Below are positions 19,237 through 32,861 of a stretch of 64,000 bases of DNA, one piece after another (position 1 is the first letter of the stretch; every line of letters begins with the position of its first letter). The stretch spans positions 3,553,741 through 3,617,740 of the forward strand of contig NZ_CP110848.1 in NCBI RefSeq assembly GCF_026240635.1. Direction: 5' to 3'. Origin of the DNA: Trichothermofontia sichuanensis B231 (GTDB taxonomy: Bacteria > Cyanobacteriota > Cyanobacteriia > B231). The position numbers and the translations under genes were made by a program. The notes under the pieces were generated by a model. The model did not search any database. It saw nothing but the letters and a program-made list of their open reading frames with translations, and was not told where the DNA came from.

Positions 19237-20835
19237 ATGCACGATCGTATTCTTTATGTCCGGCTTCCCTGTAACCCGATTTTCCCAATCGGGGTTGTTT
19301 ATCTGGCCGACCATATCCACAAACAATTCCCGGCAGTGAGCCAACGTATTTTTGATTTGGGAGCCGTGCCGCCCTTAGATTACGGCCCTGCCCTTGATCG
19401 CTGCATTGATGCATTCCAACCCTCGCTGCTGGTGTTTTCTTGGCGTGATATCCAGATCTATGCGCCTGTGGGCGGGCGGGGCGGCAATCCGCTGCAATAT
19501 GCCTTTGAGTTTTACTATGCCCGCCATCCTCTGGTAAGGCTACGGGGTGCCCTGGGTGGGTTGCGTTTAGCAGCATCCTACTACACGGAACTCTGGCGGA
19601 ATCTGGGGTTAATCCGGCGGGGACTGGCGCGATCGCGGCGGTATTGCCCCACTGCACGGGTGGTGGTGGGCGGCGGCGCCGTTAGTGTGTTCTATGAGCA
19701 GTTAGGGCGGGGTCTGCCCCAGGGGACGATCGTCTCGGTGGGGGAGGGTGAGATCTTGTTGGAGAAGGTGTTACGGCAAGAATCCCTGGCCCAGGAGCGG
19801 TGTTACATCGTGGGCGAAACTCGCCCCCGCGATCGCCTCATCCACGAAGCTCCGGCCCCCGTTGAAAAGGCTGCGTGCGACTACGACTATATTGAGACGA
19901 TCTGGCCAGAGTTTGAATACTATCTCCAGACCCAGGACTTTTATATTGGCGTGCAGACGAAGCGCGGTTGCCCCCACAACTGTTGCTATTGCGTCTACAC
20001 GGTCATTGAGGGTAAGCAGGTGCGGATTAACCCGGCAGATGAGGTGGTGGCGGAAATGCGCCAACTCTACGATCGCGGGGTCCGCAACTTCTGGTTCACC
20101 GATGCCCAGTTTATCCCCGCCCGCAAATATATCGACGATGCCGTGGAACTCCTGCAAAAGATTCTGGCATCGGGCATGACCGATATCCATTGGGCTGCCT
20201 ATATTCGGGCCGACAATCTCACGCCGGCCTTGTGTGACCTGATGGTGAAAACCGGCATGAACTATTTTGAGATCGGTATCACCAGTGGGTCCCAAGAATT
20301 AGTCCGGAAGATGCGTATGGGCTACAACCTGCGCACTGTTTTGGAAAACTGCCGTGACCTCAAAGCCGCTGGATTTAACGATCTGGTATCCGTGAACTAT
20401 TCCTTTAACGTCATCGACGAGCGTCCGGAAACCATTCGCCAGACGATCGCCTATCACCGGGAACTTGAACGGATCTTTGGGGCTGATAAGGTCGAACCAG
20501 CGATCTTCTTCATTGGCCTGCAACCCCACACCCATCTGGAGGACTACGCCTTCGAGCAGGGCATTCTCAAGCGGGGCTATGATCCCATGAGCCTGATGCC
20601 CTGGACGGCCAAAAAACTGCTTTGGAATCCGGAACCGTTAGGGTCCTTCTTTGGCGAAGTGTGCCTACAGGCTTGGGAACGCAATCCCCATGACTTTGGC
20701 CGTGAAGTGATGGCGATTCTAGAGGAACGCCTCGGTTGCGCCGACCTAGAGGAAGCCCTACGGGCACCGATCGCACCTTTAACCACCGCTCCCACCCCAC
20801 CTCTGGCTCCAATGCCTTCCCTATCCAATACTTGA
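19237..20835 (+). CDS. B12-binding-type radical SAM protein (PSII high-light acclimation type)
   Basis: A 532-aa protein with an N-terminal cobalamin-binding-like region (RLPCNPIFPIGVVYLADHI, then VVVGGGAVSVFYEQLG) and a radical SAM core. The 4Fe-4S ligands are Cys245, Cys249 and Cys252 in RGCPHNCCYCVY. ARKYIDDAVELLQ and IGITSGSQELVRKMRMGY follow the usual barrel pattern. The overall shape matches a cyanobacterial family annotated as photosystem II high-light acclimation radical SAM protein; I rely on memory for that name. The C-terminal 40 residues are Ala/Pro-rich and dispensable-looking. The substrate is unknown. A MITE copy follows 8 bases after the stop. Confidence 0.75.
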   Translation: MHDRILYVRLPCNPIFPIGVVYLADHIHKQFPAVSQRIFDLGAVPPLDYGPALDRCIDAFQPSLLVFSWRDIQIYAPVGGRGGNPLQYAFEFYYARHPLVRLRGALGGLRLAASYYTELWRNLGLIRRGLARSRRYCPTARVVVGGGAVSVFYEQLGRGLPQGTIVSVGEGEILLEKVLRQESLAQERCYIVGETRPRDRLIHEAPAPVEKAACDYDYIETIWPEFEYYLQTQDFYIGVQTKRGCPHNCCYCVYTVIEGKQVRINPADEVVAEMRQLYDRGVRNFWFTDAQFIPARKYIDDAVELLQKILASGMTDIHWAAYIRADNLTPALCDLMVKTGMNYFEIGITSGSQELVRKMRMGYNLRTVLENCRDLKAAGFNDLVSVNYSFNVIDERPETIRQTIAYHRELERIFGADKVEPAIFFIGLQPHTHLEDYAFEQGILKRGYDPMSLMPWTAKKLLWNPEPLGSFFGEVCLQAWERNPHDFGREVMAILEERLGCADLEEALRAPIAPLTTAPTPPLAPMPSLSNT

Positions 20836-20843
20836 TGACACAG

Positions 20844-20917
20844 ATAGTCATTGCCATTTAGGCTGAAACAGTTCCCTCACCCCCAACCCCTCTCCCAGAG
20901 CGGGAGAGGGAAGTGAC
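20844..20917 (-). repeat. Truncated MITE copy
   Basis: Begins ATAGTCATTGCCATTTAGGC and runs through the central palindrome CTCTCCCAGAGCGGGAGAGG, but lacks the ATCGTTCTTATTTGGATTGA end. It lies just after the radical SAM gene. Confidence 0.82.
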
Positions 20918-20950
20918 AAATTACCTGGGCATATTGCCTGGAGAAGGAGC

Positions 20951-22051
20951 CTACTTGGCGTCAGGACTTAGCTCAGGAACCGGTCTTCCTTCTGTAGAAC
21001 GTTCTATGGAAACGGCAAGTTCATAGTTCCCATCGTGGCAGTGAAGTATCGTGCGATTCCGACCCTGTTGCTTAGCTTGATAGAGTGACTGATCCGCTGC
21101 CTCGATCAAGACTGTGGGTGGCGTCGTAGAGGTGGGTATCCAACAGGCTCCTCCCACACTAATCGTGACGAGGGGACTGACGAGGGAGGCCGCATGGGCT
21201 AGACCTAAGGCCTGCACCTGCTGATGGATACGTTGGGCGACAGTCTGTACACCGGCATAAGGGGTATTCGGTAAAATAATGGCAAATTCTTCCCCGCCAT
21301 AGCGGGCCACTAAGTCGCTTGAGCGTTGTACACAGGTTTGTAAGGTGTGCGCAATCGTTTTCAGACACTCATCACCGGCTAGATGACCATAATGATCATT
21401 ATAGAGCTTAAAGTAATCCACATCGCATAGGAGTAAAGATAGCCATTGTTGCTCACGAATAGCGCGATGCCACTCTCTCTCTAGAATGTCGTCAAAGTGC
21501 CTGCGGTTAGCGATCTGCGTAAGTCCATCTAGACAAGCCAGTTTTTCTAACTCTCTAGTATTTTTTTCAAGTTGTTGATAAAGTTCTGTTAACAAGTTGG
21601 CCGTAAAATTACTCACAGCCAGTTGCGCTAATAACAGATCGTGGAAATCAATAATACGATATTCATTAGGCTCAATTTCAGCAATAATAGGGTCATATAA
21701 ACCAGATAGAGAGCGGTGAATGGCAGTTTCTGCAGCATCCGTAATTAAGGTTTTACTAGGAAAAATCAAAAGATCTATTTTGATATATTCATAAAGACAA
21801 TGGATCGGTCGATTTAAGAATAACTCCAAACTGTAAGGACGGCTCATCTTCTCCATGAAACGAATGCGAGAAATGAGACCGACTAATTGTCTTTTGTATA
21901 TCAAAAGGACGCCAGGTAATTTTTCTTCTTTTTTAAAACGTCTCATGATATACAAACCAGGATCTGTGGGGCTAGCAATTGCATCGTATAGCGTTAGATC
22001 TTCTAATCGAGAAGAACGGTCAAAGGGTAGCGATGGGAAATCCGATTCCAT
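20951..22051 (-). CDS. Diguanylate cyclase (GGDEF) with N-terminal sensory domain
   Basis: Makes cyclic di-GMP from GTP. The 366-aa protein has an N-terminal domain (about 1-165, including LPGVLLIYKRQLVGLISRIRFM and LELFLNRPI) that looks like a ligand- or CBS-type fold. A short coiled coil (LYQQLEKNTRELEKLA) links it to a GGDEF domain with the active-site sequence ARYGGEEFAII. An inhibitory RxxD site (RSSD) lies five residues before GGEEF, so product inhibition is likely. No membrane segments are seen. The partner phosphodiesterase is not in the window. Confidence 0.9.
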   Translation of the reverse strand: MESDFPSLPFDRSSRLEDLTLYDAIASPTDPGLYIMRRFKKEEKLPGVLLIYKRQLVGLISRIRFMEKMSRPYSLELFLNRPIHCLYEYIKIDLLIFPSKTLITDAAETAIHRSLSGLYDPIIAEIEPNEYRIIDFHDLLLAQLAVSNFTANLLTELYQQLEKNTRELEKLACLDGLTQIANRRHFDDILEREWHRAIREQQWLSLLLCDVDYFKLYNDHYGHLAGDECLKTIAHTLQTCVQRSSDLVARYGGEEFAIILPNTPYAGVQTVAQRIHQQVQALGLAHAASLVSPLVTISVGGACWIPTSTTPPTVLIEAADQSLYQAKQQGRNRTILHCHDGNYELAVSIERSTEGRPVPELSPDAK

Positions 22052-22398
22052 AATGAAAAGCCGAGAACTTGCCTAGGCCGAAAGTGACTGCTGACGAGTA
22101 TCTAGGACGCTTGTGTCTCAATTACCTGAAATTGTTGTCTGGTAAGCATCTCAGAGAACTATCCCCTGATCGACCAACCAACACTCGAAGCAGCTTCGCC
22201 CCATCCCCTCGCCCCGCGCGGGCGAGGTGCTCATGGAGCCAAGTTTTGCGGTTCGAGTCCCTTTACCCCTTGTGGGCGAAGGGATTTAGGGATAAGGGGA
22301 AGATTTGTCAGGTAAACAGGCGCTATTCCCCTCTGAGGGAATAGCGGCTAGTCAACGGTGGCTCCCCGCACCCTAGCTTTTAGCTTAAGGCCTGGAGG
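22052..22398. repeat. Gene-free stretch with hairpin and repeat fragments
   Basis: No gene. About 22235-22275 (TTTTGCGGTTCGAGTCCCTT) resembles 38674-38705 (TTTTGCGGTGCAAGTCCCTG), a short dispersed motif. About 22295-22320 carries AAGGGGAAGATTTGTCAGGT, like the sequences at 2355 and 38898. A 10-bp perfect hairpin, CGCTATTCCC (22321-22330) with GGGAATAGCG (22337-22346), follows. Confidence 0.6.
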
Positions 22399-22671
22399 TT
22401 AAGGCCCGGAAAAAATCGCTGCCTCAATATCTTGACGGCTGAGGGAATATTTAAAGGAGCGTTGAATGTCCTGCTGATCTTCCCCGGCTCCGTGGTAGCG
22501 CACCGTAATTTGTTCGATGTCGAGCCAGAGGGTAGCGGCCCAATCACGACCTTTAATTTCCCAACAGTGAGGTTCCTGGGGATCTTGTTCACACCCCTGG
22601 GCGATTAGCCAGCGTTCAATTTCTGGAAGGGGATGATTATAGAGGGGGGTATTGGGGGGGGGAAGGGACAT
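22399..22671 (-). CDS. DUF3143 protein
   Basis: A 90-aa protein of the DUF3143 family, small and confined mostly to cyanobacteria and plastid lineages. Visible features are LYNHPLPEIERWLIAQGCEQD, a central beta-rich WEIKGRDWAATLWLDIEQITVRY and a helical end, SRQDIEAAIFSGP. DUF3143 genes are typically next to a J-domain gene, as here (next upstream on the same strand, 103 bases away), so the two products may work together. The biochemical role is unknown. Confidence 0.82.
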   Translation of the reverse strand: MSLPPPNTPLYNHPLPEIERWLIAQGCEQDPQEPHCWEIKGRDWAATLWLDIEQITVRYHGAGEDQQDIQRSFKYSLSRQDIEAAIFSGP

Positions 22672-22774
22672 AAGCAGGGCTAAAGTAACTAGATCTGAAG
22701 GGGGGGTTGAGGGATCATCGTATACCCGGAACGCGAAAATTCTCCTTAACCGCTATCACTTGCATGAGAGACAG

Positions 22775-23287
22775 TCATCCTCGCATTATGGGCATCATCA
22801 GGGCAGCGAGGGTCGTTTCGCGGGTTAGGGCAATCACGATCGCTAGAGCTATACAGCCCCCAAAGGTGAGCAGCAAGATAAACAAGACAAAGACTTCGCC
22901 AGGGGATAGGGGACGATCGCTCGGATCAAGATAGGCTGAGGAGGGAACGGGGGGTGGGGAATGGGGGGGACGGTGGAACTCGCGGTGGGAGGAGGGACGC
23001 ACGATTGCTAGCCGTGCATACCCAATTTTCAGGTCATACTGGTAGCGACGTTCCGGTTGGCTTAGGGTAGCGTAGGCTTCATTGAGTTCTTTAAACTTCT
23101 CGGTGGCGATCGCGGCGGGCAATTCAGTTGTATCGGGATGGTACTGGCGACTCAGCCGTCGGTAGGCATTGCGGATTTGTTGGACCGATGCCGATGGATG
23201 AAGGCCCAGGCGATCGTAATAACTCCCCCGCAGCAGGACGGGGCGATGGGATGAGAAGGCACGCGGGCCTGCTTGTGGTTGGGTCAC
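22775..23287 (-). CDS. J-domain (DnaJ-like) protein with C-terminal membrane anchor
   Basis: A 170-aa co-chaperone-like protein. The J domain occupies about residues 22-87 (YYDRLGLHPSASVQQIRNAY, HPD in YHPDTTE, then FKELNEAYATLSQPERRYQYD). A Pro/Ser-rich linker follows, then one C-terminal transmembrane helix (VFVLFILLLTFGGCIALAIVI). It lacks the G/F and zinc-finger regions of DnaJ, so it probably recruits Hsp70 to a membrane, perhaps the thylakoid. It is paired with the DUF3143 gene downstream. Confidence 0.88.
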   Translation of the reverse strand: MTQPQAGPRAFSSHRPVLLRGSYYDRLGLHPSASVQQIRNAYRRLSRQYHPDTTELPAAIATEKFKELNEAYATLSQPERRYQYDLKIGYARLAIVRPSSHREFHRPPHSPPPVPSSAYLDPSDRPLSPGEVFVLFILLLTFGGCIALAIVIALTRETTLAALMMPIMRG

Positions 23288-23402
23288 GGCGAATCCCCCT
23301 CAGGCGTTTGATCGCATTGATGTTTATTGTATCGAAGTCTCTGCGGGGTGGAGGCTGTCTACCCCTTTTTTATAACCGACGAGTTGTCCCAGTGATCAGG
23401 TG

Positions 23403-25145
23403 CTATTTAGGAGTGTGATGGATTTCTTCGCGAATGATTCGCACGATCGCGGGGCCACTGGTGCAGGTCGTGGGTAACCGGATCACCTTGCCACGCAATT
23501 GGCCTTTGGTCTCCAGATCATCCACGATTTGGCTCATGGAATGGCTCATATACCCCCTCACGACCAGAATCAGATCGACCTTTTTAAGCTTTTCCTTGAA
23601 GGCTTTGGTTGAGAGATGCGTATCTTTACTCAGCGGACGAAAGTCTCTCAGGTGATTTTCCTGGGATAGGGTGGATTGAACATAGCTCATCATGGTTTGA
23701 TGTCCGCCCACAATCGCAACCCGTATGTCAGAGAGGTCAATATTTCTAAAAGATTGTTCGGCTTCATATTGAACTAGACGCTCTTCCAATTCTTCATTTT
23801 TTTGCAGAATCAGGCCATATTCGTACTCAAGTTGATAAAGTTGATTTTGAACATCGACTTTTTCTCGTTCAATCTGTCCTTTTTCTCGTTCAATCTGCTC
23901 AATTAACTCAAAAGCTTGCTCCTCTTCTGTTTTGGCTTTTTCTAAATCTGCCTTGAGTCGCTCTAGCTCTGGTGCAGGAACCAGCGATCGGGGTTGGCTT
24001 TCGAGTTGTTCCTGAAGGCTGAGGCTAAGTTCTTCGGCAGCTTTTTTTTCTTCAGCTAGTTGGGCGAGATGACGCTCTAAATCTTGAGCTTTCTGTTTGG
24101 CTTGTTCTGCCTCTAAACTAATTTCAATTCTGGTGTCATTAATACTTTTGAGTTCTGCTTCCTTATCGGCGATCGTTTGTTGAAGTTGTTCAATTTCACT
24201 CTGAATAGCCTGCTGGTCTCGCTGTGATTCCAGCAACTCGGTTTGCAGAGATTCCAGATTTTGCTGAAGCGATCGCAGTTCTTGCTCCTGAAGTTCACCC
24301 TCTTGTTGTAGTTGATGAATCTGGTCGTGTAAACTTTGCCCTTCTTCTTTGGCAGCTTTTAGTTGTGCCTCATATTGGCTTTTGAGCGTTTGGTTGAGCC
24401 GCAGTTGCTCCCGTAGTCGCGATCGCAGTCGAGTTGCTTCTTTGAGAAGGGATTGGTATTCTGCAAGCACCTGATCGCGTTGATGACGTTTCCGCTCTAA
24501 ACTTCTTTCGGTATAAACCCACATCGCTAGACCAGTCACACTAAATACCAACAGCGATAGGGTGTAACCACGACTGGTGAATCCTAAGGTATGCCAGTCC
24601 CCCCGCAACCAACTAATCTGATCTTGCCAAAATGTTGGTGGTTGATTGCGCACGAAATAAACTCGGCCTATAATCCTCCCCTCGTTTTCTAAACCTGATG
24701 CGGTTGGTTCGATCGCATGGGGCTGCACAAATTGCCACTCTGGGTAGCGGGGAATCGGGTCACGCAAGGTACTGAATAGAGCCGTTGTTAAATCTGCTGA
24801 AGTGAGGGCTTTTTGCCAGGGATAATAGGGGTGTGATTGGGCCAGAATTTTCTGATTCGGACAACTTTTATTCGCCGTTTGGCAGTCAGTAACGACAATA
24901 CTGAACAGTCCATAGTGACTATTAATAACGCGATCGATATCAGCAAAATCTTGTCGGATCAGCGCCTCAGACAGGCGATTCGGTAACGTGTGGGCCAGGA
25001 TGTTGAAATTTACCGTTTCCGCCCGCAGGACCGTCCCGTGCCAGTAACCGCGATAGTTGACCCAGTTCAGGACCGTTGCACAGGCCAGTGAGACCGAACC
25101 AGTGGCCAGTAACCGTAGTGTCGAGGTCAACCGCATCAAACCCAT
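23403..25145 (-). CDS. Membrane sensor with long coiled coil and C-terminal DUF2325-like domain
   Basis: A 580-aa protein I cannot assign to a named family. A first membrane helix (about 8-28) and a second (about 193-211) bracket a periplasmic domain containing two cysteines (TDCQTANKSC, Cys88 and Cys95) and RIIGRVYFV, suggestive of a sensory fold. Residues about 215-470 are an uninterrupted Glu/Gln/Leu-rich coiled coil with local duplications (QIEREKGQIEREK). The last 107 residues start IRVAIVGGHQ and contain KVDLILVVRGYMSHSMSQIV and VIRLPTTCTSG, resembling DUF2325, a Rossmann-like domain of unknown function. No kinase or cyclase module is present. It is probably monocistronic. Confidence 0.6.
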   Translation of the reverse strand: MGLMRLTSTLRLLATGSVSLACATVLNWVNYRGYWHGTVLRAETVNFNILAHTLPNRLSEALIRQDFADIDRVINSHYGLFSIVVTDCQTANKSCPNQKILAQSHPYYPWQKALTSADLTTALFSTLRDPIPRYPEWQFVQPHAIEPTASGLENEGRIIGRVYFVRNQPPTFWQDQISWLRGDWHTLGFTSRGYTLSLLVFSVTGLAMWVYTERSLERKRHQRDQVLAEYQSLLKEATRLRSRLREQLRLNQTLKSQYEAQLKAAKEEGQSLHDQIHQLQQEGELQEQELRSLQQNLESLQTELLESQRDQQAIQSEIEQLQQTIADKEAELKSINDTRIEISLEAEQAKQKAQDLERHLAQLAEEKKAAEELSLSLQEQLESQPRSLVPAPELERLKADLEKAKTEEEQAFELIEQIEREKGQIEREKVDVQNQLYQLEYEYGLILQKNEELEERLVQYEAEQSFRNIDLSDIRVAIVGGHQTMMSYVQSTLSQENHLRDFRPLSKDTHLSTKAFKEKLKKVDLILVVRGYMSHSMSQIVDDLETKGQLRGKVIRLPTTCTSGPAIVRIIREEIHHTPK

Positions 25146-25386
25146 CTCCGGCTGCGTAAGGATGGTGATACTTGGGAGGGCTAACTACCCCTGATCACAT
25201 TGAATCGCATTGAGCTGGGCTTAAACAATTCCGTGGCCTTCTGACCGGAAGGGTAGGGTCGGTTAATGAGGACTAACCCTAGGCGCGATCGTCGTTTGTC
25301 CGGCTTGTATCAGGATTAATTGGTCTACGCTGCCCTCGGTGTTGAGGCTAAAGCGAATCTGCAGGGCGGGGGCATGGGCAATAAAT

Positions 25387-26262
25387 TCAGACGCCCAAGT
25401 AATGGTGGTAGCTGGCGAGGGCCGCATCGGTGAGGGGCGATCGCCCGGTGAGCAGTTGGCCGATGTGTTGCAGATAGGTTTCGGCTTGGGTGATCTCGCC
25501 GCTGGCCAGGGAGAATCGAAGCAGGCTTTCCAGGACGAGGTGTTGATCGGTGGGGGATAAGTCGATGGCTAAGGTGAACAGATCGGCGAGGTCGGGGATG
25601 AGGTCACCCAGGTCTTGCAGGCGATCGGGGGTGTAGTGGCTGAGATCCTGGGGCAGGAGTTTGGCCCATTTGAGCAGTTTGGTCGGGCTAAAGTTCGGGA
25701 CTGGAGGGGTTGGCGTGGTCTGGGGCGATCGCGCTGTTGGGGCAGGTGAGTTGGACTTTTGAGGGTTAGGGGTGCCCCGTTGCTTGCCCTGCTCCCATTG
25801 ACCCTGGGGTTGAAACAGCCATTGCAGGTTTTGGCTGAGGGCGGCAGAATCGATGAGTGGATGGGCTAACTTGAGTAGGGAGTGGCGATATTCGGTATTG
25901 GCACCCGCTTCGCGCTGATCGCTGAGGATGCCGCAATGGTGTAGGCAGTGAAAGGCGACTTTGAGGGCTTGTTTCTGTTCAGATGCCGATTGCTGGTAGA
26001 ACTGGGCGATCGCGGATTGCTCTAGTGAGTATGGTTCCAGCCAGGGTTGGCGATGGGGGGCTGTGTCTTGGATCAGGGTGAGGAATTGGGCGATCGTGCC
26101 TTTGAGGCGAATCAGGCGGCCCTGGGTTTGTTTAAAGTTAACGAAGCTGAGTTTGGGGGAGTTGGCACGTGGCGGGGGGCTTTCTATCAGCAGGCGATCG
26201 AGCAGGGTGGCGATGAGGAGGAGGGCGATCGGTTTGCCTTGCTTGAAGTTGGGGCGTGCCAT
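25387..26262 (-). CDS. Uncharacterised cytoplasmic protein divergent from a C39-like gene
   Basis: I do not recognise this protein. From the ATG at 26262 it is 291 aa; the frame is open to 26472, but the extra 70 residues look non-coding and run into the upstream region of the neighbour. The N-terminal domain (about 1-165) is helical and contains ALLLIATLLDRLLIES, AFHCLHHCGILSD and HSLLKLAHPLID. A Pro/Thr/Ser-rich linker (about 180-205) leads to a C-terminal helical repeat-like domain (LLKWAKLLPQDLSHYTPDRL to YLQHIGQLL). It is divergently transcribed from the cysteine-protease-like gene at 26435, so the two may share a control region. Confidence 0.55.
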   Translation of the reverse strand: MARPNFKQGKPIALLLIATLLDRLLIESPPPRANSPKLSFVNFKQTQGRLIRLKGTIAQFLTLIQDTAPHRQPWLEPYSLEQSAIAQFYQQSASEQKQALKVAFHCLHHCGILSDQREAGANTEYRHSLLKLAHPLIDSAALSQNLQWLFQPQGQWEQGKQRGTPNPQKSNSPAPTARSPQTTPTPPVPNFSPTKLLKWAKLLPQDLSHYTPDRLQDLGDLIPDLADLFTLAIDLSPTDQHLVLESLLRFSLASGEITQAETYLQHIGQLLTGRSPLTDAALASYHHYLGV

Positions 26263-26434
26263 AACTGTCCCCAAATTTCCCCAGTCCGGTTGGGTGAATT
26301 TTCCCAGTATCACGATGGATGACGGGCCGGAAACCATTGTCTGGTCTGGCTTAGGACCGGGCTGATCGCCGTGTTTGCTGGGGAAGAAACCTATTTGCCA
26401 TGATAAGGCTAATCGCAATTGAGGGGGAACTTCG

Positions 26435-27796
26435 ATGCAGGACGATTGGCTGACTGATCTGTTGCCCAGCACGCTGACTGATCCGACGGCGGCACCTGAG
26501 GCGGTAACTCACACTAGCCCGGATCTCACGGCTGACCCGCTGGCAAGTTCCCACACTACCCTCACCCATCACAGCTTGGAGCCGGACTTAACGAGTCATC
26601 CGGCGTCAATGCCTCACCTGGATGCGCCTAGTTGGCACGATTACCCAAGGACGATGTATAGCCCCTCGCAGACGGCCAGTAGCACAACGAGTGGTGGCGG
26701 CGATAGTGTTGATCCAAGTGGGAATGCCTGGGACTGGACGATTGGGGGTCTATCTGCACCTCATGCCACGTTTGATCCGGCCCATCCGGGGGGCGTGGTG
26801 GTGGGTGATCCAGCCGCGGCGGCGGCCCATTGGCAACCCCAACACATGGCGGATTCCTGTGTGTCGGCGGTGCAAAGCAACATGATTGCGGAGCAAACGG
26901 GTCGATCGCTGCCGGAAATGGTGTTGTATGCAGAGGCGATCGCCAGTGGGCTGATTCAGGAGCAGGGGACACCTGCGATCTTGACGCCGGTGGAGTTGCA
27001 GCAGCATGGGGTACCGGCCCACGCCCATGTCTATGGGACGATCGCGGATCTGGAAACGGCGGTGGCCCACGGGGAAAGTGTGATGGTGGGGGTGAATGCC
27101 CAGGCGATCGCGCAGCCGGATGCGAGTTCGTTGTGGGGGGCGTTGGCGCAACCGGGTGGGTCAGGGTTGGCCGATCATGCGGTGGAGGTGACGGGATTTA
27201 TTCATTCGCCCCAGGATGGGCATCTGCAATCGGTGGTGGTGAATGAGCCAGGGATACCCCACGGGGCGGCAGCGGTGGTGCCCATTGAGCAGTTTCAGCA
27301 GGCTTGGGCGGCGAGTCAGAATTTCTATGTGGCGACGGAGGTGCATCAGCCGTTACAGGCTCCGGATGTCAGTTTGGGAGATCAGCCACAAGGGGGTTTG
27401 GGGGGGTTAGGTTTTGCCTTGGGAGGAAGTAATGATCAGCCCTATGTAGAATTTATCGGCGATCATATTTGGCAACATTACAAAAATGGGGATTGTAGTG
27501 AGGTTGGGTATGTAGAGAATCAGAAGTTTTATAGTCGGAGGGATGGTTACTGTGGCAAGTTGGGCAGTGATTGGAATATTTATGATGCGCATGGAGATCG
27601 GGTGGGGTATGTGGACAGTAATTTAGATGTGCGATCGCCGAATGGGCGCTTTTTGACTCATGCTGGTAGTGCTATAGGCGGGGCGGCTTGGTTATTGTTT
27701 GTGGGCATGGGTGGGTGTCGTAGGGCTGTGCCAGTTAGGGAAGTGTTCACCACCAAGACACAAAGAACACGAAGAAGCACCAAGATCTTTGTGTAA
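26435..27796 (+). CDS. C39-like cysteine-peptidase protein with disordered N terminus
   Basis: A 453-aa protein. Residues 1-125 are Ser/Thr/Pro/His-rich and probably disordered. Residues about 130-305 look like a papain/C39-type peptidase: Cys142 in MADSCVSAVQSNM, His248 in LADHAVEVTGF and Asn270 in VVVNEPG form a plausible triad. Residues about 335-425 hold a beta-rich repeat domain (VGYVENQKFYSRRDGYCGKL, then WNIYDAHGDRVGYVDSN). There is no ABC transporter or double-glycine leader, so it is not a typical bacteriocin exporter. The last ~16 residues (FTTKTQRTRRSTKIFV) are read from an inserted palindromic repeat, so the original C terminus was probably different. No secretion signal is seen. 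Confidence 0.62.
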   Translation: MQDDWLTDLLPSTLTDPTAAPEAVTHTSPDLTADPLASSHTTLTHHSLEPDLTSHPASMPHLDAPSWHDYPRTMYSPSQTASSTTSGGGDSVDPSGNAWDWTIGGLSAPHATFDPAHPGGVVVGDPAAAAAHWQPQHMADSCVSAVQSNMIAEQTGRSLPEMVLYAEAIASGLIQEQGTPAILTPVELQQHGVPAHAHVYGTIADLETAVAHGESVMVGVNAQAIAQPDASSLWGALAQPGGSGLADHAVEVTGFIHSPQDGHLQSVVVNEPGIPHGAAAVVPIEQFQQAWAASQNFYVATEVHQPLQAPDVSLGDQPQGGLGGLGFALGGSNDQPYVEFIGDHIWQHYKNGDCSEVGYVENQKFYSRRDGYCGKLGSDWNIYDAHGDRVGYVDSNLDVRSPNGRFLTHAGSAIGGAAWLLFVGMGGCRRAVPVREVFTTKTQRTRRSTKIFV

Positions 27797-27834
27797 CTTT
27801 GTGCCCTTAGTGCCTTGGTGGTAAAAACTCAAGA
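27746..27834. repeat. Palindromic CACCACCAAG...CTTGGTGGT repeat, copy 1
   Basis: The sequence begins TTCACCACCAAGACACAAAG and ends GTGCCTTGGTGGTAAAAACT, an imperfect inverted repeat of about 90 bp. It supplies the final codons and stop of the C39-like gene. A second copy lies at 28281-28368. Similar CACCA(C/A)CAAG-type repeats are common in bacterial genomes. Confidence 0.85.
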
Positions 27835-27845
27835 GGTAAACTTAA

Positions 27846-28307
27846 ATGACCCAATCACTCTATGAACAAGACATCCTCCTCTGGGCCGAAGACACGGTAG
27901 CCAAACTAAAAGCGAGGGATTTTGAACACCTAGATTTAGAGCATTTGATTGAGGAGGTAGAATCCTTGGGTATCTCCCAGCGGAAGGAGTTATTGACCCG
28001 CCTGACTCGGCTATTGGAACATTTACTGAAACGGCTCTATGTGCCTTCCCCAGAGGACTACCGAGGTTGGGAGAATACCATTCGGGAACAACGGCGGCAG
28101 CTACGTTTTTTGCTAGAGGCAGCACCGAGTCTTAAGCGTTTGTGGGCGGTTTCGTTCGATCGCGCTTGGCAGGCGGCCTATGAGGATATGAGCGATGCCT
28201 ATCCCCAGATTCCGTTTCCATCAATATGGCCCTATGAAGGTGAGATAGAGGTAGTGTTAACGGCGAATTTTTGGGAAAGGGAACCACCAAGCCACGAAGG
28301 ACACTAA
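27846..28307 (+). CDS. DUF29 protein
   Basis: A 153-aa member of the DUF29 family, abundant in cyanobacteria and often multicopy. Landmarks are YEQDILLWAEDTVAKLKARDF, LEHLIEEVESLGISQRKEL, LLEHLLKRLY and the helical region RQLRFLLEAAPSL. It is probably a small helical bundle; function unknown. AGAGGT lies 8 bases before the ATG. The last seven residues (PPSHEGH) are encoded by copy 2 of the palindromic repeat, as the C39-like gene ends in copy 1. A truncated duplicate of this gene follows at 28381. Confidence 0.85.
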   Translation: MTQSLYEQDILLWAEDTVAKLKARDFEHLDLEHLIEEVESLGISQRKELLTRLTRLLEHLLKRLYVPSPEDYRGWENTIREQRRQLRFLLEAAPSLKRLWAVSFDRAWQAAYEDMSDAYPQIPFPSIWPYEGEIEVVLTANFWEREPPSHEGH

Positions 28308-28368
28308 GGAACACCAAGCTCTTTGTATAACTTGGTGCCCTTAGTGCCTTGGTGGTAAAAAACTCAAG
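28281..28368. repeat. Palindromic CACCACCAAG...CTTGGTGGT repeat, copy 2
   Basis: Begins GGAACCACCAAGCCACGAAG and ends AGTGCCTTGGTGGTAAAAAA. It provides the stop codon of the upstream DUF29 gene and precedes the truncated DUF29 copy with the same spacing as copy 1 precedes the intact gene. Repeat plus gene were therefore duplicated as one ~535-bp unit. Confidence 0.85.
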
Positions 28369-28380
28369 CGGTATAAGCTG

Positions 28381-28557
28381 ATGACCCAATCACTCTACGA
28401 ACAAGACATCTTGCTTTGGGCCGAAGACACCGTAGCCAAACTGAAAGCACGGGATTTTGAACACCTAGATTTAGAACATTTGATTGAGGAGGTAAAAGCC
28501 TTGGGTATCTCCCAGCGGGAGTGTGCTGACACAAGCTCTAGTAATACCTCACGGTAA
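28381..28557 (+). pseudogene. Truncated duplicate of the DUF29 gene
   Basis: The first 46 codons are nearly identical to the intact DUF29 gene at 27846 (only a VES to VKA change before LGISQR). The frame then enters unrelated sequence and stops after 58 codons. Its last 9 bases overlap the 3' end of the convergent gene at 28549. The copy has lost two thirds of the domain and is very unlikely to be functional. Confidence 0.85.
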
Positions 28558-30096
28558 CCAGCGGGGGTTAAAGCCAACGATCGGTAAGGCTTCTGGTTTG
28601 AGCTGAGAAGCCGGATCCCGGGTGGCCAGAATGGCAGGATCAAGGGGCAAGAACCACAGGCGACTATCGGCAATCGGACGCCCATCCCGACCTCTGGGGG
28701 CTTCCGCCAGCTTGGCATCCGGGGTATCCACCGCTAGGGGTTGATCAAACAGCAGAGCCAACCCATCAGGGGCCAAGTTCATCTGGATACCCTGCTGCTC
28801 TGGCAGCAACACTAAGGGAACGAGTTCCTCGGTTTCCAAATCGATCGCCGCCAAAAAGGGCTGCTCTCGATATCCCTCGCCCTCCACAACCTCAGCCAAG
28901 AGGCAATATAGCCAGCGCTGGGTTGGGTCAAATTGGGCTGCCTGGATCGAACCTTGAAAACGCAATAATTCTTTTTGATCGCCCCGATTGTTGATCAGAT
29001 AGAGCGATCGTGTGAAGTCGGTATTGAACTTGACCATAGCAGCAGTCGTGCCATCCCGCGTAAAACTAAGGGCCTGACTGAACTTGGGTAAAAATTCCAG
29101 TAACTTGTCCTGACCGCCAGTTGCACTTGGTTGGGTCTCCGCATGGAGAGGCAGTAGGGCAATCCCCTGGCCCTGAGCAACCGCGATCGCCCGACTGTCT
29201 GGAGTAATCAGGAAATCACCCCCCGGTTCACTGTCCAGCCGTTGGGGAGCTTGTCCCGGTCGCACTACCCATAGGCCAAAGTCCGCTGGATTCTCCTTAT
29301 TCACCCGGCGCACAACGATCGCGCTGCCATCCCTGGCTAGATCAAACTGGAGATTTTGAAACCCCTGGCTATCCAGGACTGGCTCAATCACACCGGGGGC
29401 AGGCGGGTTGGTTGGCGTAGCGTTCCCCAAGGGAAATCGCCAGCGATGGCTGGCTTCTGGAGCAATGCCCGTAGTGACAGTATACAGTCGTTGCTCCAGA
29501 CTTCCCTGGCGCAGAGCAGCCCGCTCAATGGCGCTAAATAGCAAGCGATCGCCCTGGGGGTAGGGTTGGAAGTCGAGCACAACCCACTCAGCAGGAGTCA
29601 GAATTTTAGACTGCTGTTGGGTAAGGTTATTGAGGACCAGGCGTCCGGCTGCTTCCCCCGTCACCCCAATATAGGCAAAGGCGCGATCGCGGGTCCTGAA
29701 CTGTCCGACAAACGGTTGCATCGGGGGCGCATCAGCAGCGACAGTAGTCCCGATCTGCTCCTTGGCATTGGCCAACTTAACCTGGAACGCCGTACCATAG
29801 GGAGCTGGCAAGGTCAGAGTATAGGCAAAGCGCCGTCCGGCCCAACTAGTCTTCCCAGGCAGTAGTGGCTCGATCACCAAGTTGTCCTCCACACTTTTCA
29901 TGTCCATTGGACGGCTAAAGGTAAGGATAAAAGCCGTATCGTCCACCCCAATTTGCCGATCCTGCCAAGAAAACTCCCGCACCCTGGGGGCTACCTGTTC
30001 TCCCTGCCACAGCAATAGGGCAATCAGGCAACTCAGGACCAGCATCAGGCTGATGGCCACGCGATCGAGGGGTTGCCAGGTAAATTTCTCAGACAT
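28549..30096 (-). CDS. Membrane-anchored Ig-like/beta-propeller protein
   Basis: A 515-aa protein anchored by one N-terminal helix (about 12-34, VAISLMLVLSCLIALLLW). Next comes a bacterial Ig-like (SbsA/Big-type) domain with the diagnostic IGVDDTAFILTFSRPMD. The remainder has WD40/TolB-like propeller repeats (LFSAIERAALRQG, FDLARDGSAIVVRRV, LLITPDS-like and FDPTQRWLYCLL segments). It is most likely periplasmic. Similar proteins are widespread in cyanobacteria without assigned function. I chose ATG 30096; TTG at 30102 would add two residues. It lies 34 bases downstream of the FKBP gene on the same strand, so both could be one operon of extracytoplasmic folding or assembly factors. Confidence 0.7.
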   Translation of the reverse strand: MSEKFTWQPLDRVAISLMLVLSCLIALLLWQGEQVAPRVREFSWQDRQIGVDDTAFILTFSRPMDMKSVEDNLVIEPLLPGKTSWAGRRFAYTLTLPAPYGTAFQVKLANAKEQIGTTVAADAPPMQPFVGQFRTRDRAFAYIGVTGEAAGRLVLNNLTQQQSKILTPAEWVVLDFQPYPQGDRLLFSAIERAALRQGSLEQRLYTVTTGIAPEASHRWRFPLGNATPTNPPAPGVIEPVLDSQGFQNLQFDLARDGSAIVVRRVNKENPADFGLWVVRPGQAPQRLDSEPGGDFLITPDSRAIAVAQGQGIALLPLHAETQPSATGGQDKLLEFLPKFSQALSFTRDGTTAAMVKFNTDFTRSLYLINNRGDQKELLRFQGSIQAAQFDPTQRWLYCLLAEVVEGEGYREQPFLAAIDLETEELVPLVLLPEQQGIQMNLAPDGLALLFDQPLAVDTPDAKLAEAPRGRDGRPIADSRLWFLPLDPAILATRDPASQLKPEALPIVGFNPRWLP

Positions 30097-30129
30097 GTTC
30101 AAACCAAGGCAAACAGCAGGACCGCCGAC

Positions 30130-30750
30130 CTAGTTTACAGCCAGCAGTTCAATATCAAAAACGAGCGTAGCATCCGGCGGAATCACCCCCCCAGCCCCAC
30201 GGGAACCATAGCCCAACTCAGAGGGGATAATCAACTTACGGCGACCCCCCACTTTCATACTGGCGACGCCTTCATCCCAACCCTTAATCACCTGACCGAC
30301 GCCAATCGTGAATTGAAAGGGACGCCCCCGATCGCGGGAACTATCAAATTGCTTGCCATTGGTAAGGGTACCCGTATAGTGCACGGTGACCCGATCGCCC
30401 GGTTGCGGGCTGGGGCCATCGCCTACTCGTAGATCTTCATACTGGAGGCCAGAGGGCAGAGTTACGATCGCATTCGCCTCCGGATTCGCCGCAGTCACCG
30501 GTTCATCTCCAGAAGGGCTGACAGTTTCAGAGGGATTGACAGCCGTGGCCTCTTTGGAGGCTTGTGCGATCGTCAACGCCGCATCTGCCGACCCATCTGA
30601 AGTCACTGGGGTACTGATCGTGGCCGTTGGCAAAGGGGAGTTGGGAGCCGGATCAGCCATCGCAGATTTGCGATCGCCCACCAGTTGAGCGGTAATCAGC
30701 ACCACACAACAGATCACCATCACGCCAATACTGATCAAAATTTCGCGCAC
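30130..30750 (-). CDS. FKBP-type peptidyl-prolyl isomerase, membrane-anchored
   Basis: A 206-aa protein with an N-terminal hydrophobic anchor (ILISIGVMVICCVVLITAQLV), an Ala/Thr/Pro-rich linker to about residue 95, and one complete FKBP domain: GDRVTVHYTGTLTNGKQFDS, GVGQVIKGWDEGVASM, and AGGVIPPDATLVFDIELL. It probably catalyses proline isomerisation in the periplasm or thylakoid lumen. The start is a GTG at 30750 with AAGGAG nine bases upstream, a strong ribosome-binding site that decides the start. Confidence 0.93.
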   Translation of the reverse strand: MREILISIGVMVICCVVLITAQLVGDRKSAMADPAPNSPLPTATISTPVTSDGSADAALTIAQASKEATAVNPSETVSPSGDEPVTAANPEANAIVTLPSGLQYEDLRVGDGPSPQPGDRVTVHYTGTLTNGKQFDSSRDRGRPFQFTIGVGQVIKGWDEGVASMKVGGRRKLIIPSELGYGSRGAGGVIPPDATLVFDIELLAVN

Positions 30751-30950
30751 AATCGCTTCTCCTTTATCTGTTATCTCTTATTTAAAGACACCGCGATTCA
30801 TAGCGATCAAAGCAGCTAAACTGCTGGAATCGATGCTATGACATGATCGACAACGACCAAAACAGGATCAGGAGTTTCGTCGTCCCCCTAAGCAGGGAAC
30901 CCCATAGGGTAATAGCTCCCAAACACACTCTCACCGTCAGCCGGAGAGCA

Positions 30951-31274
30951 CTACTTCCACAAACGATTTTCCAGATCCCGGACCTGACGTTCTAAGCGAT
31001 CGATCCGTCCCCGCAACTCATTGACTTCTGACTGATTAGCCACCCCAATATCCTGGAGTGTATTTTTTAATAACCGTTGCATTTGGCTTTCCAGATTCCC
31101 CTGCTCCGACTTAAATTGGTTCATAAAGTCATCCACAAACGTCCTGGCTTGCTCTGGGTCAAGCCGTCCCGTTTTGACCCACTCCTCACTCACCTCCCGA
31201 ATTTTTTCCGCCACCAGTGAAGTCGTGCCAATCCCAATCATCAGCAATTGTTTGAGTAGGTTGTTGCTATCCAT
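30951..31274 (-). CDS. Phasin-like small protein
   Basis: A 107-aa helical protein resembling polyhydroxyalkanoate granule-associated phasins (PhaI/PhaF-like, COG3937). It has a hydrophobic segment LLKQLLMIGIGTTSLVAEKI, then EEWVKTGRLDPEQARTFVDDFMNQF, and a C-terminal leucine-zipper-like coiled coil (ELRGRIDRLERQVRDLENRL). It probably coats storage granules or the membrane, but no pha genes are nearby. ATG 31274 is preferred over TTG 31280 because TAGGA precedes it at good distance. It is monocistronic. Confidence 0.72.
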   Translation of the reverse strand: MDSNNLLKQLLMIGIGTTSLVAEKIREVSEEWVKTGRLDPEQARTFVDDFMNQFKSEQGNLESQMQRLLKNTLQDIGVANQSEVNELRGRIDRLERQVRDLENRLWK

Positions 31275-31280
31275 ACACAA

Positions 31281-31650
31281 TTCCTAGGAGCCAATGGGCA
31301 AAGCCAGTCAACGATTGTCTCGTCACCCGCCCCTATTCCTGGGGTAAAGGTCCTGTTCCATTGTGGGCGATCTTGGAGACGTTGTGGCAGTCGATCAGCG
31401 TCGGATTACCGTATCCCTCGCCAACATCAGGCTGGTTCGCCAAAACCAGTCGGCACCTTGGCACCAAAACGGTCAACTGTCACCTAGATGAATTCGGCAC
31501 ATAACCAGGGGGTTGCTGTTATGATTGCCGTAATTGCCTCAATGCTACATATCAATGCTGCATACCGCCCAACACGATCGCCGCCACGACTAGTTTCTCG
31601 TAAATGGACGATCGTTGAGCGACAGCGGTAACTTCTGCATATTGGTATTT
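31281..31650. other. Gene-free stretch before tRNA-Arg
   Basis: About 370 bp with no coding frame, no palindrome of note and no repeat-family member that I can see. It presumably contains promoters for the phasin-like gene (leftward) and tRNA-Arg (rightward). Confidence 0.5.
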
Positions 31651-31724
31651 GGGGCTGTAGCTCAGCCGGACAGAGCAAGCGCCTCCTAAGCGCTAGGCCG
31701 TGGGTTCAAATCCCACCAGTCCCG
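31651..31724 (+). tRNA. tRNA-Arg (anticodon CCT)
   Basis: Cloverleaf: acceptor GGGGCTG with CAGTCCC (one G-T pair), D arm GCTC-AGCCGGACA-GAGC, anticodon stem AGCGC/GCGCT with loop CTCCTAA (anticodon CCT, reads AGG), and T arm GTGGG-TTCAAAT-CCCAC, discriminator G. CCA is not encoded. The sequence downstream is a decayed integrated element, consistent with use of this tRNA 3' end as an attachment site. Confidence 0.95.
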
Positions 31725-31730
31725 TAAGCT

Positions 31731-31758
31731 AAAACCCTTTTTAGGTAAGGGTTTTGCG
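31731..31758 (+). terminator. Probable terminator of tRNA-Arg
   Basis: AAAACCCTT (31731-31739) and AAGGGTTTT (31747-31755) form a 9-bp hairpin seven bases beyond the tRNA. The T-rich right arm serves as a weak U tract. Confidence 0.6.
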
Positions 31759-31789
31759 TTATGTAGTTCATTGGCAGGGTAGATAAAAC

Positions 31790-31839
31790 TTGGTACTTGG
31801 TACCGCTATTTGGTACCCAATTGGTACCAGTACCAATTG
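31790..31839. promoter_or_regulatory. Cluster of five TTGGTAC(C) boxes with palindrome
   Basis: TTGGTAC(C) occurs at 31790-31796, 31797-31804, 31810-31817 and 31821-31828, and inverted (GTACCAA) at 31830-31836. The last two form a 22-base near-perfect palindrome CAATTGGTAC-CA-GTACCAATTG (31818-31839). Position just beyond the tRNA, and 0.65 kb from an integrase remnant, suggests arm-type integrase or excisionase binding sites, but they could equally be an operator. Confidence 0.6.
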
Positions 31840-32027
31840 CCCCTCCTAGGTCTGGGGGGAGTTTGTCAATGGCCAATAAACGGCATAGCCAATGATAAGA
31901 CAATGATTACCAATAGATTTTACTTATGATTGACATAAGTAATACAAATGTTGATGTCAGCCCTTGGTTGACTGGCCAATATACTGTAGTAACCATTGAA
32001 TAACGGGATGTTAATCGATGTTAATCA

Positions 32028-32105
32028 ATGACTGCTAAGGGTGGTAAACGTGTAGGTGCTGGCAGACCAATGGCGTGGAGTCAGAAAGCCGATAGCAGGG
32101 TATAG
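32028..32105 (+). pseudogene. Short remnant ORF with GGKRVGAGRP motif
   Basis: ATG at 32028 opens 25 codons, MTAKGGKRVGAGRPMAWSQK followed by five more and a stop. KGGKRxGAGRP is a common N terminus of small plasmid- or phage-borne DNA-binding proteins. It is short and AT-rich surroundings suggest a decayed mobile-element gene. Identity is tentative. Confidence 0.4.
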
Positions 32106-32228
32106 ATACCCCATGACCTTTTGCCCCTACTGCATCAGAAATAATCAAAATAGTAGATATATACGTAGAATATACGATTCTAAGGAAATGTCATCAGAAG
32201 CTAAGTTCCAGGGTGTTATAACTGAAAA

Positions 32229-32290
32229 TTCCACCGTACCCTAGAATAAACTTTTCCACCATACAATAGAATTCTCTACCAGACAATGGG
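32229..32290. repeat. Direct repeats TTCCACC(G/A)TAC..TAGAAT
   Basis: TTCCACCGTACCCTAGAAT (32229-32247) and TTCCACCATACAATAGAAT (32254-32272) are spaced 25 bases apart. A weaker third unit begins at 32275 (TCTACCAGACAATGGGA). Iteron-like, within the decayed island beyond tRNA-Arg. Confidence 0.6.
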
Positions 32291-32351
32291 AAAGTCCCGT
32301 CGAGCCAACTGACGCGCTTACTAGGGGATACAAGGAAATATTAGGTACTGT

Positions 32352-32463
32352 GGCTCTTCTGAGTTTATGGTGGGGGCGCGTAGCGCCCCCACCATAAACT
32401 CAGCATTTGCGATCGTTTATTTGTAGCTGCTGATACTGCTTACCCCAAAATCCCAGAAGAACC
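32352..32463 (-). repeat. GGCTCTTCTG element with 19-bp-arm hairpin, copy in integrase remnant
   Basis: Starts GGCTCTTCTGAG and ends TCCCAGAAGAACC. It contains a perfect 41-base hairpin at 32361-32401 (arm GAGTTTATGGTGGGGGCGC, loop GTA). The remainder is the inverse of TAAACAGTATCAGCAACTAC and following bases seen at 39001. It sits where the integrase reading frame breaks off. Confidence 0.85.
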
Positions 32464-32847
32464 TAGTTTTCAGTTTGCGGGTTACGTTACCAAAAGTGCT
32501 AGCAAGCGTGCTAGGAGATACCGTAGGCGTCTTGAAGGCAAGATATTGAGACCAGACGTCTGCCAGCGTGATGACGCTAGCTGGTGTATTGACTACAGCT
32601 AGGTGCCTAGCTGGCTTATATCGCTCCAGAGTAGGGTCAAACTGACCCAGTTCGATGTCTGCCAGCATGGCATTCAATCGCCTAGTAGCGATCGCTCGAT
32701 TATCTGGTGTGTCATTAACCTCAGTGACAGAATAGAACGCTTGCCACCGCACGAAGACGCGGGTACCCAGATACGCAATTTGCCGTTATTCACCTCAAGC
32801 TTGGGGATGCCATGCTTGTATTTCTGTTCCGAGAAGCTAGCAACCAT
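32464..32847 (-). pseudogene. Truncated, frameshifted tyrosine integrase (N-terminal part)
   Basis: Two overlapping frames together give the N terminus of a cyanobacterial phage-type integrase (DUF3596-like arm-binding domain): HGIPKLEVNNGKLRIWVP in one frame. After a one-base shift near 32745 comes FYSVTEVNDTPDNRAIATRR, then LADIELGQFDPTLERYKP and LADVWSQYLAFKTPTVSPSTL (start of the core-binding domain). The catalytic domain with the Arg-His-Arg-Tyr residues is missing; the frame ends at a repeat element (32352-32463). The upstream end abuts the stop of the DUF928 gene. The location near tRNA-Arg fits a defunct integrated element. Confidence 0.82.
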
Positions 32848-32861
32848 ATGTCCTGGGCACT

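What the first reader, a model, noticed from the sequence alone, without database searches (positions are those of the whole stretch)
25387..27796. Divergent pair: unknown helical protein and C39-like cysteine-protease protein
The protease-like protein has a disordered His/Ser/Thr-rich N terminus, a Cys142/His248/Asn270 triad and a C-terminal beta-repeat domain, but no exporter or leader. The divergent partner has helical N and C domains joined by a Pro/Thr linker and matches no family I know. A shared control region, absence of metabolic neighbours, and an effector-like enzyme make this my best candidate for an undescribed two-gene system (for example a conflict, proteolytic maturation or regulated-lysis module). 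The evidence is thin.
Basis: inference. Interest (0 to 1): 0.55.

Follow-up and report, generated by a model that had tools for sequence, protein, structure and literature searches.

The report
Stray cysteine protease beside adaptor gene
A real, fast-evolving papain-fold protease in a cyanobacterium, whose relatives often sit among membrane-remodelling dynamin genes, lies next to an adaptor protein of a known conflict-system type; the two were not found together in the other genomes examined, so they are probably not a two-gene system.

Summary
The protease is real: residues 109-304 model as a papain-like, C39-type domain (VIA-align Z 18.0 to Alr0975, 17.3 to 3erv), and Gln136, Cys142, His248 and Asn270 are invariant in 14 of 14 aligned members. 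The divergent gene is real but starts at ATG 26262, not GTG 26472, and encodes a divergent effector-associated domain 4 (EAD4) plus a helical C-terminal domain. A profile of two other EAD4 domains hits it at E 2.5e-5 (per genome); the 10 other genomes hit among 378 are all EAD4-positive.

The proposed divergent system is not supported: no EAD4-like gene was seen beside the protease elsewhere, and the host shows no second EAD4. Other linkage exists. The next same-strand gene, DUF29, is also the next gene in G007 and 63% identical. In 15 of 21 genomes family members sit beside dynamin-like GTPases, three with Hsp70-like genes; the host has no relative of the operon's 804-aa dynamin.

Best reading: a solitary derivative of a dynamin-linked protease family, next to an unrelated EAD4 gene.

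The parts
26435..27796 (+). C39-like papain-fold cysteine peptidase, 453 aa; conserved Gln136/Cys142/His248/Asn270; disordered N terminus 1-108; beta-rich C-terminal part about 337-409
   Evidence: 14 of 14 invariant; model; fold; relatives
27749..27827 (.). copy of a dispersed inverted-repeat element; supplies about the last 16 codons and the stop of the peptidase gene
27846..28307 (+). DUF29 protein (153 aa), next gene after the peptidase here and in G007
   Evidence: Pfam PF01724 E 4e-37; same order in G007; 63% identity to the G007 copy
28358..28521 (+). partial tandem duplicate of the 5' part of DUF29, preceded by a second copy of the repeat element (28283-28361)
   Evidence: DUF29 fragment also
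25387..26262 (-). divergent gene, 291 aa from ATG 26262: divergent EAD4 domain (about residues 1-162), Pro/Thr linker, helical C-terminal domain (about 190-291)
26263..26434 (.). 172-nt gap between the two start codons; no promoter-like site found

Best explanation
Two functionally unrelated genes lie head to head. The + strand gene makes an intracellular papain-fold (C39-like) cysteine peptidase, a solitary, fast-evolving offshoot of a bacterial family whose other known members are mostly encoded beside two or three dynamin-like GTPases, sometimes with an Hsp70. I propose that it is a target-specific processing protease: the disordered N-terminal segment and the C-terminal beta part restrain or place it, and once triggered Cys142 attacks a short segment of one or a few target proteins. 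In the operon relatives the target or trigger is most likely the dynamin machine; this genome lacks that machine and the peptidase travels with DUF29, which may be its target, regulator or inhibitor. The - strand gene encodes an EAD4-type adaptor with no detectable homotypic partner in this genome. Shown by computation: fold, conserved active-site residues, family contexts, DUF29 linkage in two genomes, EAD4 identity, no other detectable EAD4 and no relative of the 804-aa operon dynamin in this genome. Inferred: catalytic activity, intracellular location, the processing role, any role of DUF29, and the absence of a link between the two divergent genes.
For: Fold and active site. PF13529 matches 7 of 14 aligned members at E 0.01 or better and is above its curated cut-off in L028 and L029. 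Dynamin context in 15 of 21 distinct genomes: Dynamin_N confirmed by Pfam in 12 neighbouring proteins of L026, L027, L031, L042, L043 and L046 (2, 10), by homology in G117, G140 and G228, elsewhere by a P-loop pattern or by eye. The 804-aa dynamin query matches 6 of 6 operon genomes and 0 of 4 solitary ones, host included (weak, GTPase part only, in G140 and G228). Three solitary proteins (Gloeocapsopsis, Phormidium tenue, Pleurocapsales; clade support 100/100) nest within a cyanobacterial dynamin-linked group (85/83). DUF29 linkage; a second G007 DUF29 has a remnant of the peptidase 3' end before it. Partner as EAD4.
Against: The window protein itself matches no peptidase family in Pfam, NCBIfam, PADLOC or PHROGs; its placement rests on relatives, and its branch is very long (4.31 changes per column), so its origin within the family is uncertain and 'offshoot of a dynamin operon' is not shown for it. 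Two of the 15 dynamin-linked copies (G117, G330) are only remnants. The DUF29 link is seen in two genomes only and DUF29 is multicopy (8 matches in the host). The host has other proteins with PF00350 matches above cut-off, not classified here. Close relatives are few, so absence of the divergent pair elsewhere is weak evidence. No activity, expression or localisation data exist.
Confidence: 0.6

Rival explanations
1. The divergent pair is a real two-gene conflict module: the EAD4 protein senses or scaffolds and recruits or activates the peptidase, which then cleaves host targets.
For: EAD4 is listed among the EADs that recruit effectors in Kaur et al. 2020 (PMC7159879, section 30 read); a protease is a plausible effector; the genes are 172 nt apart head to head and the partner's codon usage is normal for the window, so it is not an obvious relic.
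Against: No other EAD4 is detectable in the host, whereas that paper expects a second copy fused to a core component. No EAD4 was found in the peptidase. No EAD4-like gene was seen near the other solitary peptidases. Of nine sampled peptidase genomes besides the host, 2 (G007, G206) have EAD4 anywhere, on other contigs, against 61 of 388 overall: no clear enrichment.
Confidence: 0.15
2. The functional unit is peptidase plus DUF29 on the same strand: DUF29 is the inhibitor, chaperone or substrate of the peptidase. (Compatible with the best explanation.)
For: Same order and strand, 49 and 52 nt apart, in two genomes of different families; the two DUF29 proteins are 63% identical, against 37-44% to the four longer host paralogues compared. 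A peptidase remnant precedes a second DUF29 in G007.
Against: Two genomes only. A truncated host DUF29 (L116) is 77% identical over 77 aa, and its neighbours were not examined for a peptidase. No DUF29 was recognised by eye beside the dynamin-linked relatives, but these were not scanned for it.
Confidence: 0.3
3. The protein is a papain-fold enzyme that is not a protease, such as a glutathione hydrolase like Nostoc Alr0975.
For: Alr0975 is the top structural match by VIA-align (Z 18.0, rmsd 3.0, 175 residues) and second by Foldseek.
Against: 3erv (C39-like) is tied within 1 Z unit (17.3); identity is 10% to Alr0975 and 18% to 3erv; relatives match Peptidase_C39_2.
Confidence: 0.1
4. Both genes are decaying relics: the peptidase lost its operon and its tail to a repeat insertion, and the partner is the stump of an EAD4 protein once fused to an NTPase.
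For: Very long branch, repeat-derived C terminus, degenerate copies in G117, G330 and G007; many EAD4 domains lie in long open frames of about 700-1,400 aa.
Against: Intact frames of 453 and 291 codons; catalytic residues kept; normal coding signal in the partner (0.30 bits/codon), though a low one in the peptidase (0.13, near the bottom of the training range).
Confidence: 0.15

Closest known systems
Peptidase_C39_2 (PF13529) / C39-like peptidases, e.g. PDB 3erv
   Same: Papain-like fold and conserved Gln, Cys, His, Asn; 7 of 14 aligned members match the Pfam model; Foldseek rank 1
   Different: The window protein itself is not matched by the model; no fused ABC exporter; long disordered N terminus; beta-rich C-terminal part
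ComA / PCAT1 peptidase domains (C39 proper)
   Same: Fold (3k8u: Z 15.2, rmsd 2.4, 136 residues)
   Different: Not fused to a transporter; no double-glycine leader substrate seen
Alr0975, primitive phytochelatin synthase of Nostoc
   Same: Fold (Z 18.0)
   Different: 10% identity; third catalytic residue is Asp in Alr0975 (recalled), Asn here
Effector-associated domain 4 (PF19959; Kaur et al. 2020, PMC7159879, passages, section 30 read)
   Same: Partner's N-terminal 160 aa, including a MARPNF start and a GILxDxRE...NLxWLF...W core
   Different: Below the Pfam cut-off (16.7 against 27 bits); not fused to an NTPase; no second EAD4 found in the genome
GTPase-HSP70-tubulin conflict systems of the same paper (passages only)
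   Same: GTPases grouped with HSP70, reminiscent of the setting of the peptidase's relatives
   Different: The main text has 0 occurrences of 'dynamin' and of 'C39'; the window locus has neither GTPase nor HSP70 beside the peptidase
Cyanobacterial dynamin 'tandem' and 'chaperone' clades (PMC5827413, 2018; section 7 read)
   Same: Genomic setting of the peptidase's relatives: dynamin-like pairs, dynamin next to DnaK
   Different: The main text has 0 occurrences of peptidase or protease (its supplement was not seen); the window locus has no dynamin beside it

Membership tests
C39-like papain-fold peptidases | papain-like fold of the catalytic domain | tested here: met
   predicted model and fold matches
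C39-like papain-fold peptidases | conserved Gln, Cys, His, Asn/Asp | tested here: met
   Q136, C142, H248, N270 in 14 of 14 rows
C39-like papain-fold peptidases | match to PF13529 above cut-off | tested here: inconclusive
   Not matched by the window protein; 7 of 14 rows at E 0.01; above cut-off in L028 and L029
C39-like papain-fold peptidases | proteolytic activity | not testable with these tools
   none
C39 bacteriocin-processing exporters | peptidase fused to an ABC exporter | tested here: not met
   no transporter domain in the 453-aa protein
C39 bacteriocin-processing exporters | exporter or leader-peptide substrate nearby | tested here: inconclusive
   none recognised by eye among ORFs at 20000-33000; only four of these ORFs were scanned against Pfam
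EAD4 | sequence match to an EAD4 profile | tested here: met
   E 2.5e-5 per genome with a profile that excludes it; Pfam PF19959 E 0.011 but below cut-off; a profile of 29 typical EAD4 domains gives only E 0.31
EAD4 | second copy of the same EAD fused to a core component in the same genome | tested here: not met
   besides the partner only a chance-level match (E 0.5, an ABC transporter ATPase) in the host; none. A copy as divergent as the partner could escape
dynamin-linked C39 peptidase operon | adjacent dynamin-like GTPase genes | tested here: not met
   the three flanking proteins are not GTPases by Pfam; no relative of the 804-aa operon dynamin in the genome at E 1e-5
anti-phage defence systems of PADLOC | match to a PADLOC model | tested here: not met
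   0 families for both proteins at E 1

The most novel reading that the evidence does not exclude
The locus is a stand-alone conflict module that broke away from a dynamin-Hsp70-peptidase system: the C39-like peptidase is the executioner, DUF29 its antidote, and the divergent EAD4 protein its sensor or adaptor. If so, the dynamin-linked peptidase operons found here in Cyanobacteriota, Actinomycetota, Acidobacteriota and Bacillota, partly on plasmids, are an undescribed class of protease-coupled membrane-remodelling defence.
Probability: 0.1. Interest if true: 0.75.

Novelty: new variant of a known kind. Interest (0 to 1): 0.4.

Why it matters
The window pair itself is modest: a divergent C39-like peptidase and a divergent EAD4 adaptor. 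What matters is the family behind it. A papain-fold peptidase recurs beside dynamin-like genes in four phyla (the Acidobacteriota and Bacillota cases are one metagenome-assembled contig each) and on plasmids, with Hsp70 in some. No paper describing this was found in the open-licence library. Bacterial dynamins have few known in vivo roles (own knowledge), so a linked protease gives a testable handle: does it cut the dynamins, and when?

Tried and rejected
Rejected: GTG 26472 as the partner's start (no coding signal; EAD4 start motif). Rejected: IniB-type N terminus for the peptidase family (a recalled resemblance; 0 of 14 members match any NCBIfam model at E 1). Mobile origin: no phage record matches the peptidase at E 0.01, no viral-contig relative or plasmid match of the partner was found; the peptidase itself has 7 plasmid records with 28-31% identity over its catalytic part, so plasmid relatives exist. 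Rejected: PDB hits of the family profile to designed WRAP-T proteins (23 residues only).

Results that are weak or against: a profile of 29 typical EAD4 domains (30 loci L051-L080; L054 gave no frame in the script) ranks the partner first among 592 sequences but only at E 0.31, little above shuffles at 1.7. In one search the rows under E 0.1 against 1365 ORFs are all EAD4 proteins, but only two genes (G251, G003) are under E 0.01, the printed list was cut, and the set was rich in EAD4 loci by construction. The single-sequence model of the partner is poor in its EAD4 part (pLDDT below 50 over 21-172); its C-terminal matches are helical and middling (best Z 9.0; Foldseek best E 0.77), so 'TPR-like' would be a guess. 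DUF29 papers: in the two opened, the hits were other DUF numbers that begin with 29. The G319 hit (E 9.8e-4) was dropped from counts: its frame shows none of the motifs. L044 (Chroococcus) is counted as 'no dynamin seen', but its frame is broken and the contig ends there. PF00350 matches of the host were looked at in six fetched stretches and not classified.

Dead ends in method: a genome-contig scan with the window peptidase found nothing; an alignment of eight members was too diverse for the scan, so four closer members were used, which favours close relatives.

Full report
Observation. The + strand ORF 26435-27796 (453 aa) and the - strand ORF 25387-26472 (361 aa from GTG) are present. The window lies in a 4.44 Mb, single-contig genome; all other sampled relatives are 'same class' only. 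Three of those same-class genomes share contigs with named records of Anabaena, Phormidium tenue and Gloeocapsopsis (contig lengths), so the host is a cyanobacterium. The partner's likely start is ATG 26262: the upstream 210 nt score -0.17 bits/codon while the remaining 291 codons score 0.30, against 0.12-0.37 for 19 training ORFs. The overlap of the two ORFs then disappears and 172 nt separate the starts. A simple scan found no promoter-like site there, and Rfam found only a tRNA in 22000-32000.

Protease identity. The window protein alone matches only a weak Bflower_2 at its C terminus. Relatives were found in G007 (37% identity, E 7e-19) and G036 (E 3e-8), 3 of 96 genomes with the host. A profile of these three matched 11 of 388 class genomes, host included (G319 dropped as marginal). 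A closer four-member profile found 14 named loci, among them Actinomycetota and single metagenome-assembled contigs of Acidobacteriota and Paenibacillaceae. In a 14-row alignment Gln136, Ser141, Cys142, His248 and Asn270 are invariant. AlphaFold2 with that alignment models about 111-300 well apart from a loop. Foldseek ranks a C39-like peptidase (3erv) first, then Alr0975 and ComA; VIA-align gives Z 18.0 for Alr0975, 17.3 for 3erv and about 15 for ComA and PCAT1, the first two tied. Seven of 14 rows match PF13529 at E 0.01. I conclude a papain fold with an intact active site; activity is inferred, and the triad distances were not measured.

Context of the family. I listed genes around the relatives. 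Counting each genome once, 21 hold a member or remnant: the host, G007, G036, G117, G140, G206, G228, G304, G330, G365, and 11 named genomes not already among these. In 15 of 21 the neighbours include dynamin-like GTPases, two of these (G117, G330) with only a peptidase remnant. In G228 an Hsp70 lies nearby (Pfam), and Hsp70-like genes were recognised by eye in G140 and G330. Six have no dynamin seen: host, G007, Gloeocapsopsis (G036), Phormidium tenue (G206), Chroococcus FPU101 (contig end, broken frame) and Pleurocapsales LEGE 10410. Pfam confirms Dynamin_N in 12 neighbouring proteins of L026, L027, L031, L042, L043 and L046; homology to the 804-aa query supports G117, G140 and G228; in the Nostoc, Sphaerospermopsis, Oscillatoria, Streptomyces and E. 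scabrispora loci the assignment rests on a P-loop pattern or reading by eye. A common order is dynamin - peptidase - 800-aa dynamin - dynamin. Of 27 plasmid records that match a dynamin-linked member I opened three, and all three show dynamin, Hsp70 and a C39 peptidase within about 12 kb. The 804-aa dynamin query matched 6 of 6 operon genomes and 0 of 4 solitary genomes tested, host included; in G140 and G228 the matches are weak and cover the GTPase part. An 18-row tree (broken copies left out) places three solitary cyanobacterial proteins inside a dynamin-linked group (85/83), so solitary status is derived at least there; the window and G007 branches are too long to place.

DUF29. The gene after the peptidase, 27846-28307, is DUF29 (E 4e-37). 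In G007 the peptidase is also followed by DUF29 on the same strand. The two DUF29 proteins are 63% identical; four longer host paralogues are 37-44% identical to the window copy and a truncated one 77% over 77 aa. A second G007 locus has a peptidase 3' remnant followed by DUF29. This is small but real synteny, unlike the divergent partner.

Partner identity. Pfam gives a weak EAD4 match (E 0.018 for the long ORF, 0.011 from ATG 26262). In 388 class genomes its best other hit was a NACHT protein of G251 (E 9.5e-5 per genome), whose N terminus is EAD4 at E 6.7e-16. A profile of that domain and the EAD4 of G003, without the partner, matches 11 of 378 genomes at E 0.01: ten at places that the EAD4 family scan also found, and the partner (E 2.5e-5 per genome). 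Nineteen of 29 extracted EAD4 domains start MARP[NS]YG; the partner starts MARPNF. Against it: a profile of those 29 gives only E 0.31. The host shows no other EAD4, whereas EADs are held to act by homotypic pairing with a copy on a core component (PMC7159879, section 30 read).

Why not a divergent module. No EAD4-like gene was seen beside the other solitary peptidases; of nine sampled peptidase genomes besides the host, two have EAD4, on other contigs, against 61 of 388; no EAD4 was found in the peptidase. What remains is adjacency in one genome. I give the divergent module 0.15.

Literature. Ten searches were made; seven bear on a C39-like peptidase with dynamin or Hsp70 and showed no paper describing it. 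The library lacks most subscription journals, and a LeoABC dynamin paper (PMC4159319) was seen only in the listing. PMC5827413 (section 7 read; term search) describes dynamin tandem and DnaK-linked clades in cyanobacteria without mention of a peptidase in the main text. PMC7159879 was seen in passages and section 30; PMC8195603 in passages; PMC3710099 and PMC12038448 in passages, off the subject.

Verdict. Real protease, real adaptor-type neighbour, no evidence that they form one system; the more interesting object is the dynamin-linked peptidase family.

Noticed in passing
L117, L118, L119; L026, L036, L042, L043, L046: A C39-like peptidase recurs beside dynamin-like GTPase genes in Cyanobacteriota, Actinomycetota, Acidobacteriota and Bacillota, and with Hsp70 on one Anabaena and two Rhodococcus plasmids opened; not found described in the searches made.
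   Followed up: partly
27749-27827 and 28283-28361: Two copies of an inverted-repeat element; the first supplies the end of the peptidase frame; an end pattern has 27 hits in the genome against 0 in the control.
   Followed up: partly
28358-28521: Partial tandem duplication (88% over 164 nt) of the start of the DUF29 gene together with the repeat element.
   Followed up: no
L023:10807-15000: A CRISPR-like array (56 copies found in the stretch searched, about 75-nt spacing) lies about 1.5 kb from the G007 peptidase.
   Followed up: no
L028:7930-9036, L042:8518-9627, L043:2363-3433: These dynamin-linked peptidases carry DxDGDG calcium-loop-like stretches near the N terminus, and several family members share a short acidic N-terminal stretch with a Trp, as in the window protein (MQDDWLTDLL); both seen by eye.
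   Followed up: no
L031:7757-8461 and L030:8480-8671: Peptidase copies in G330 and G117 are truncated or broken although dynamin genes beside them remain.
   Followed up: no
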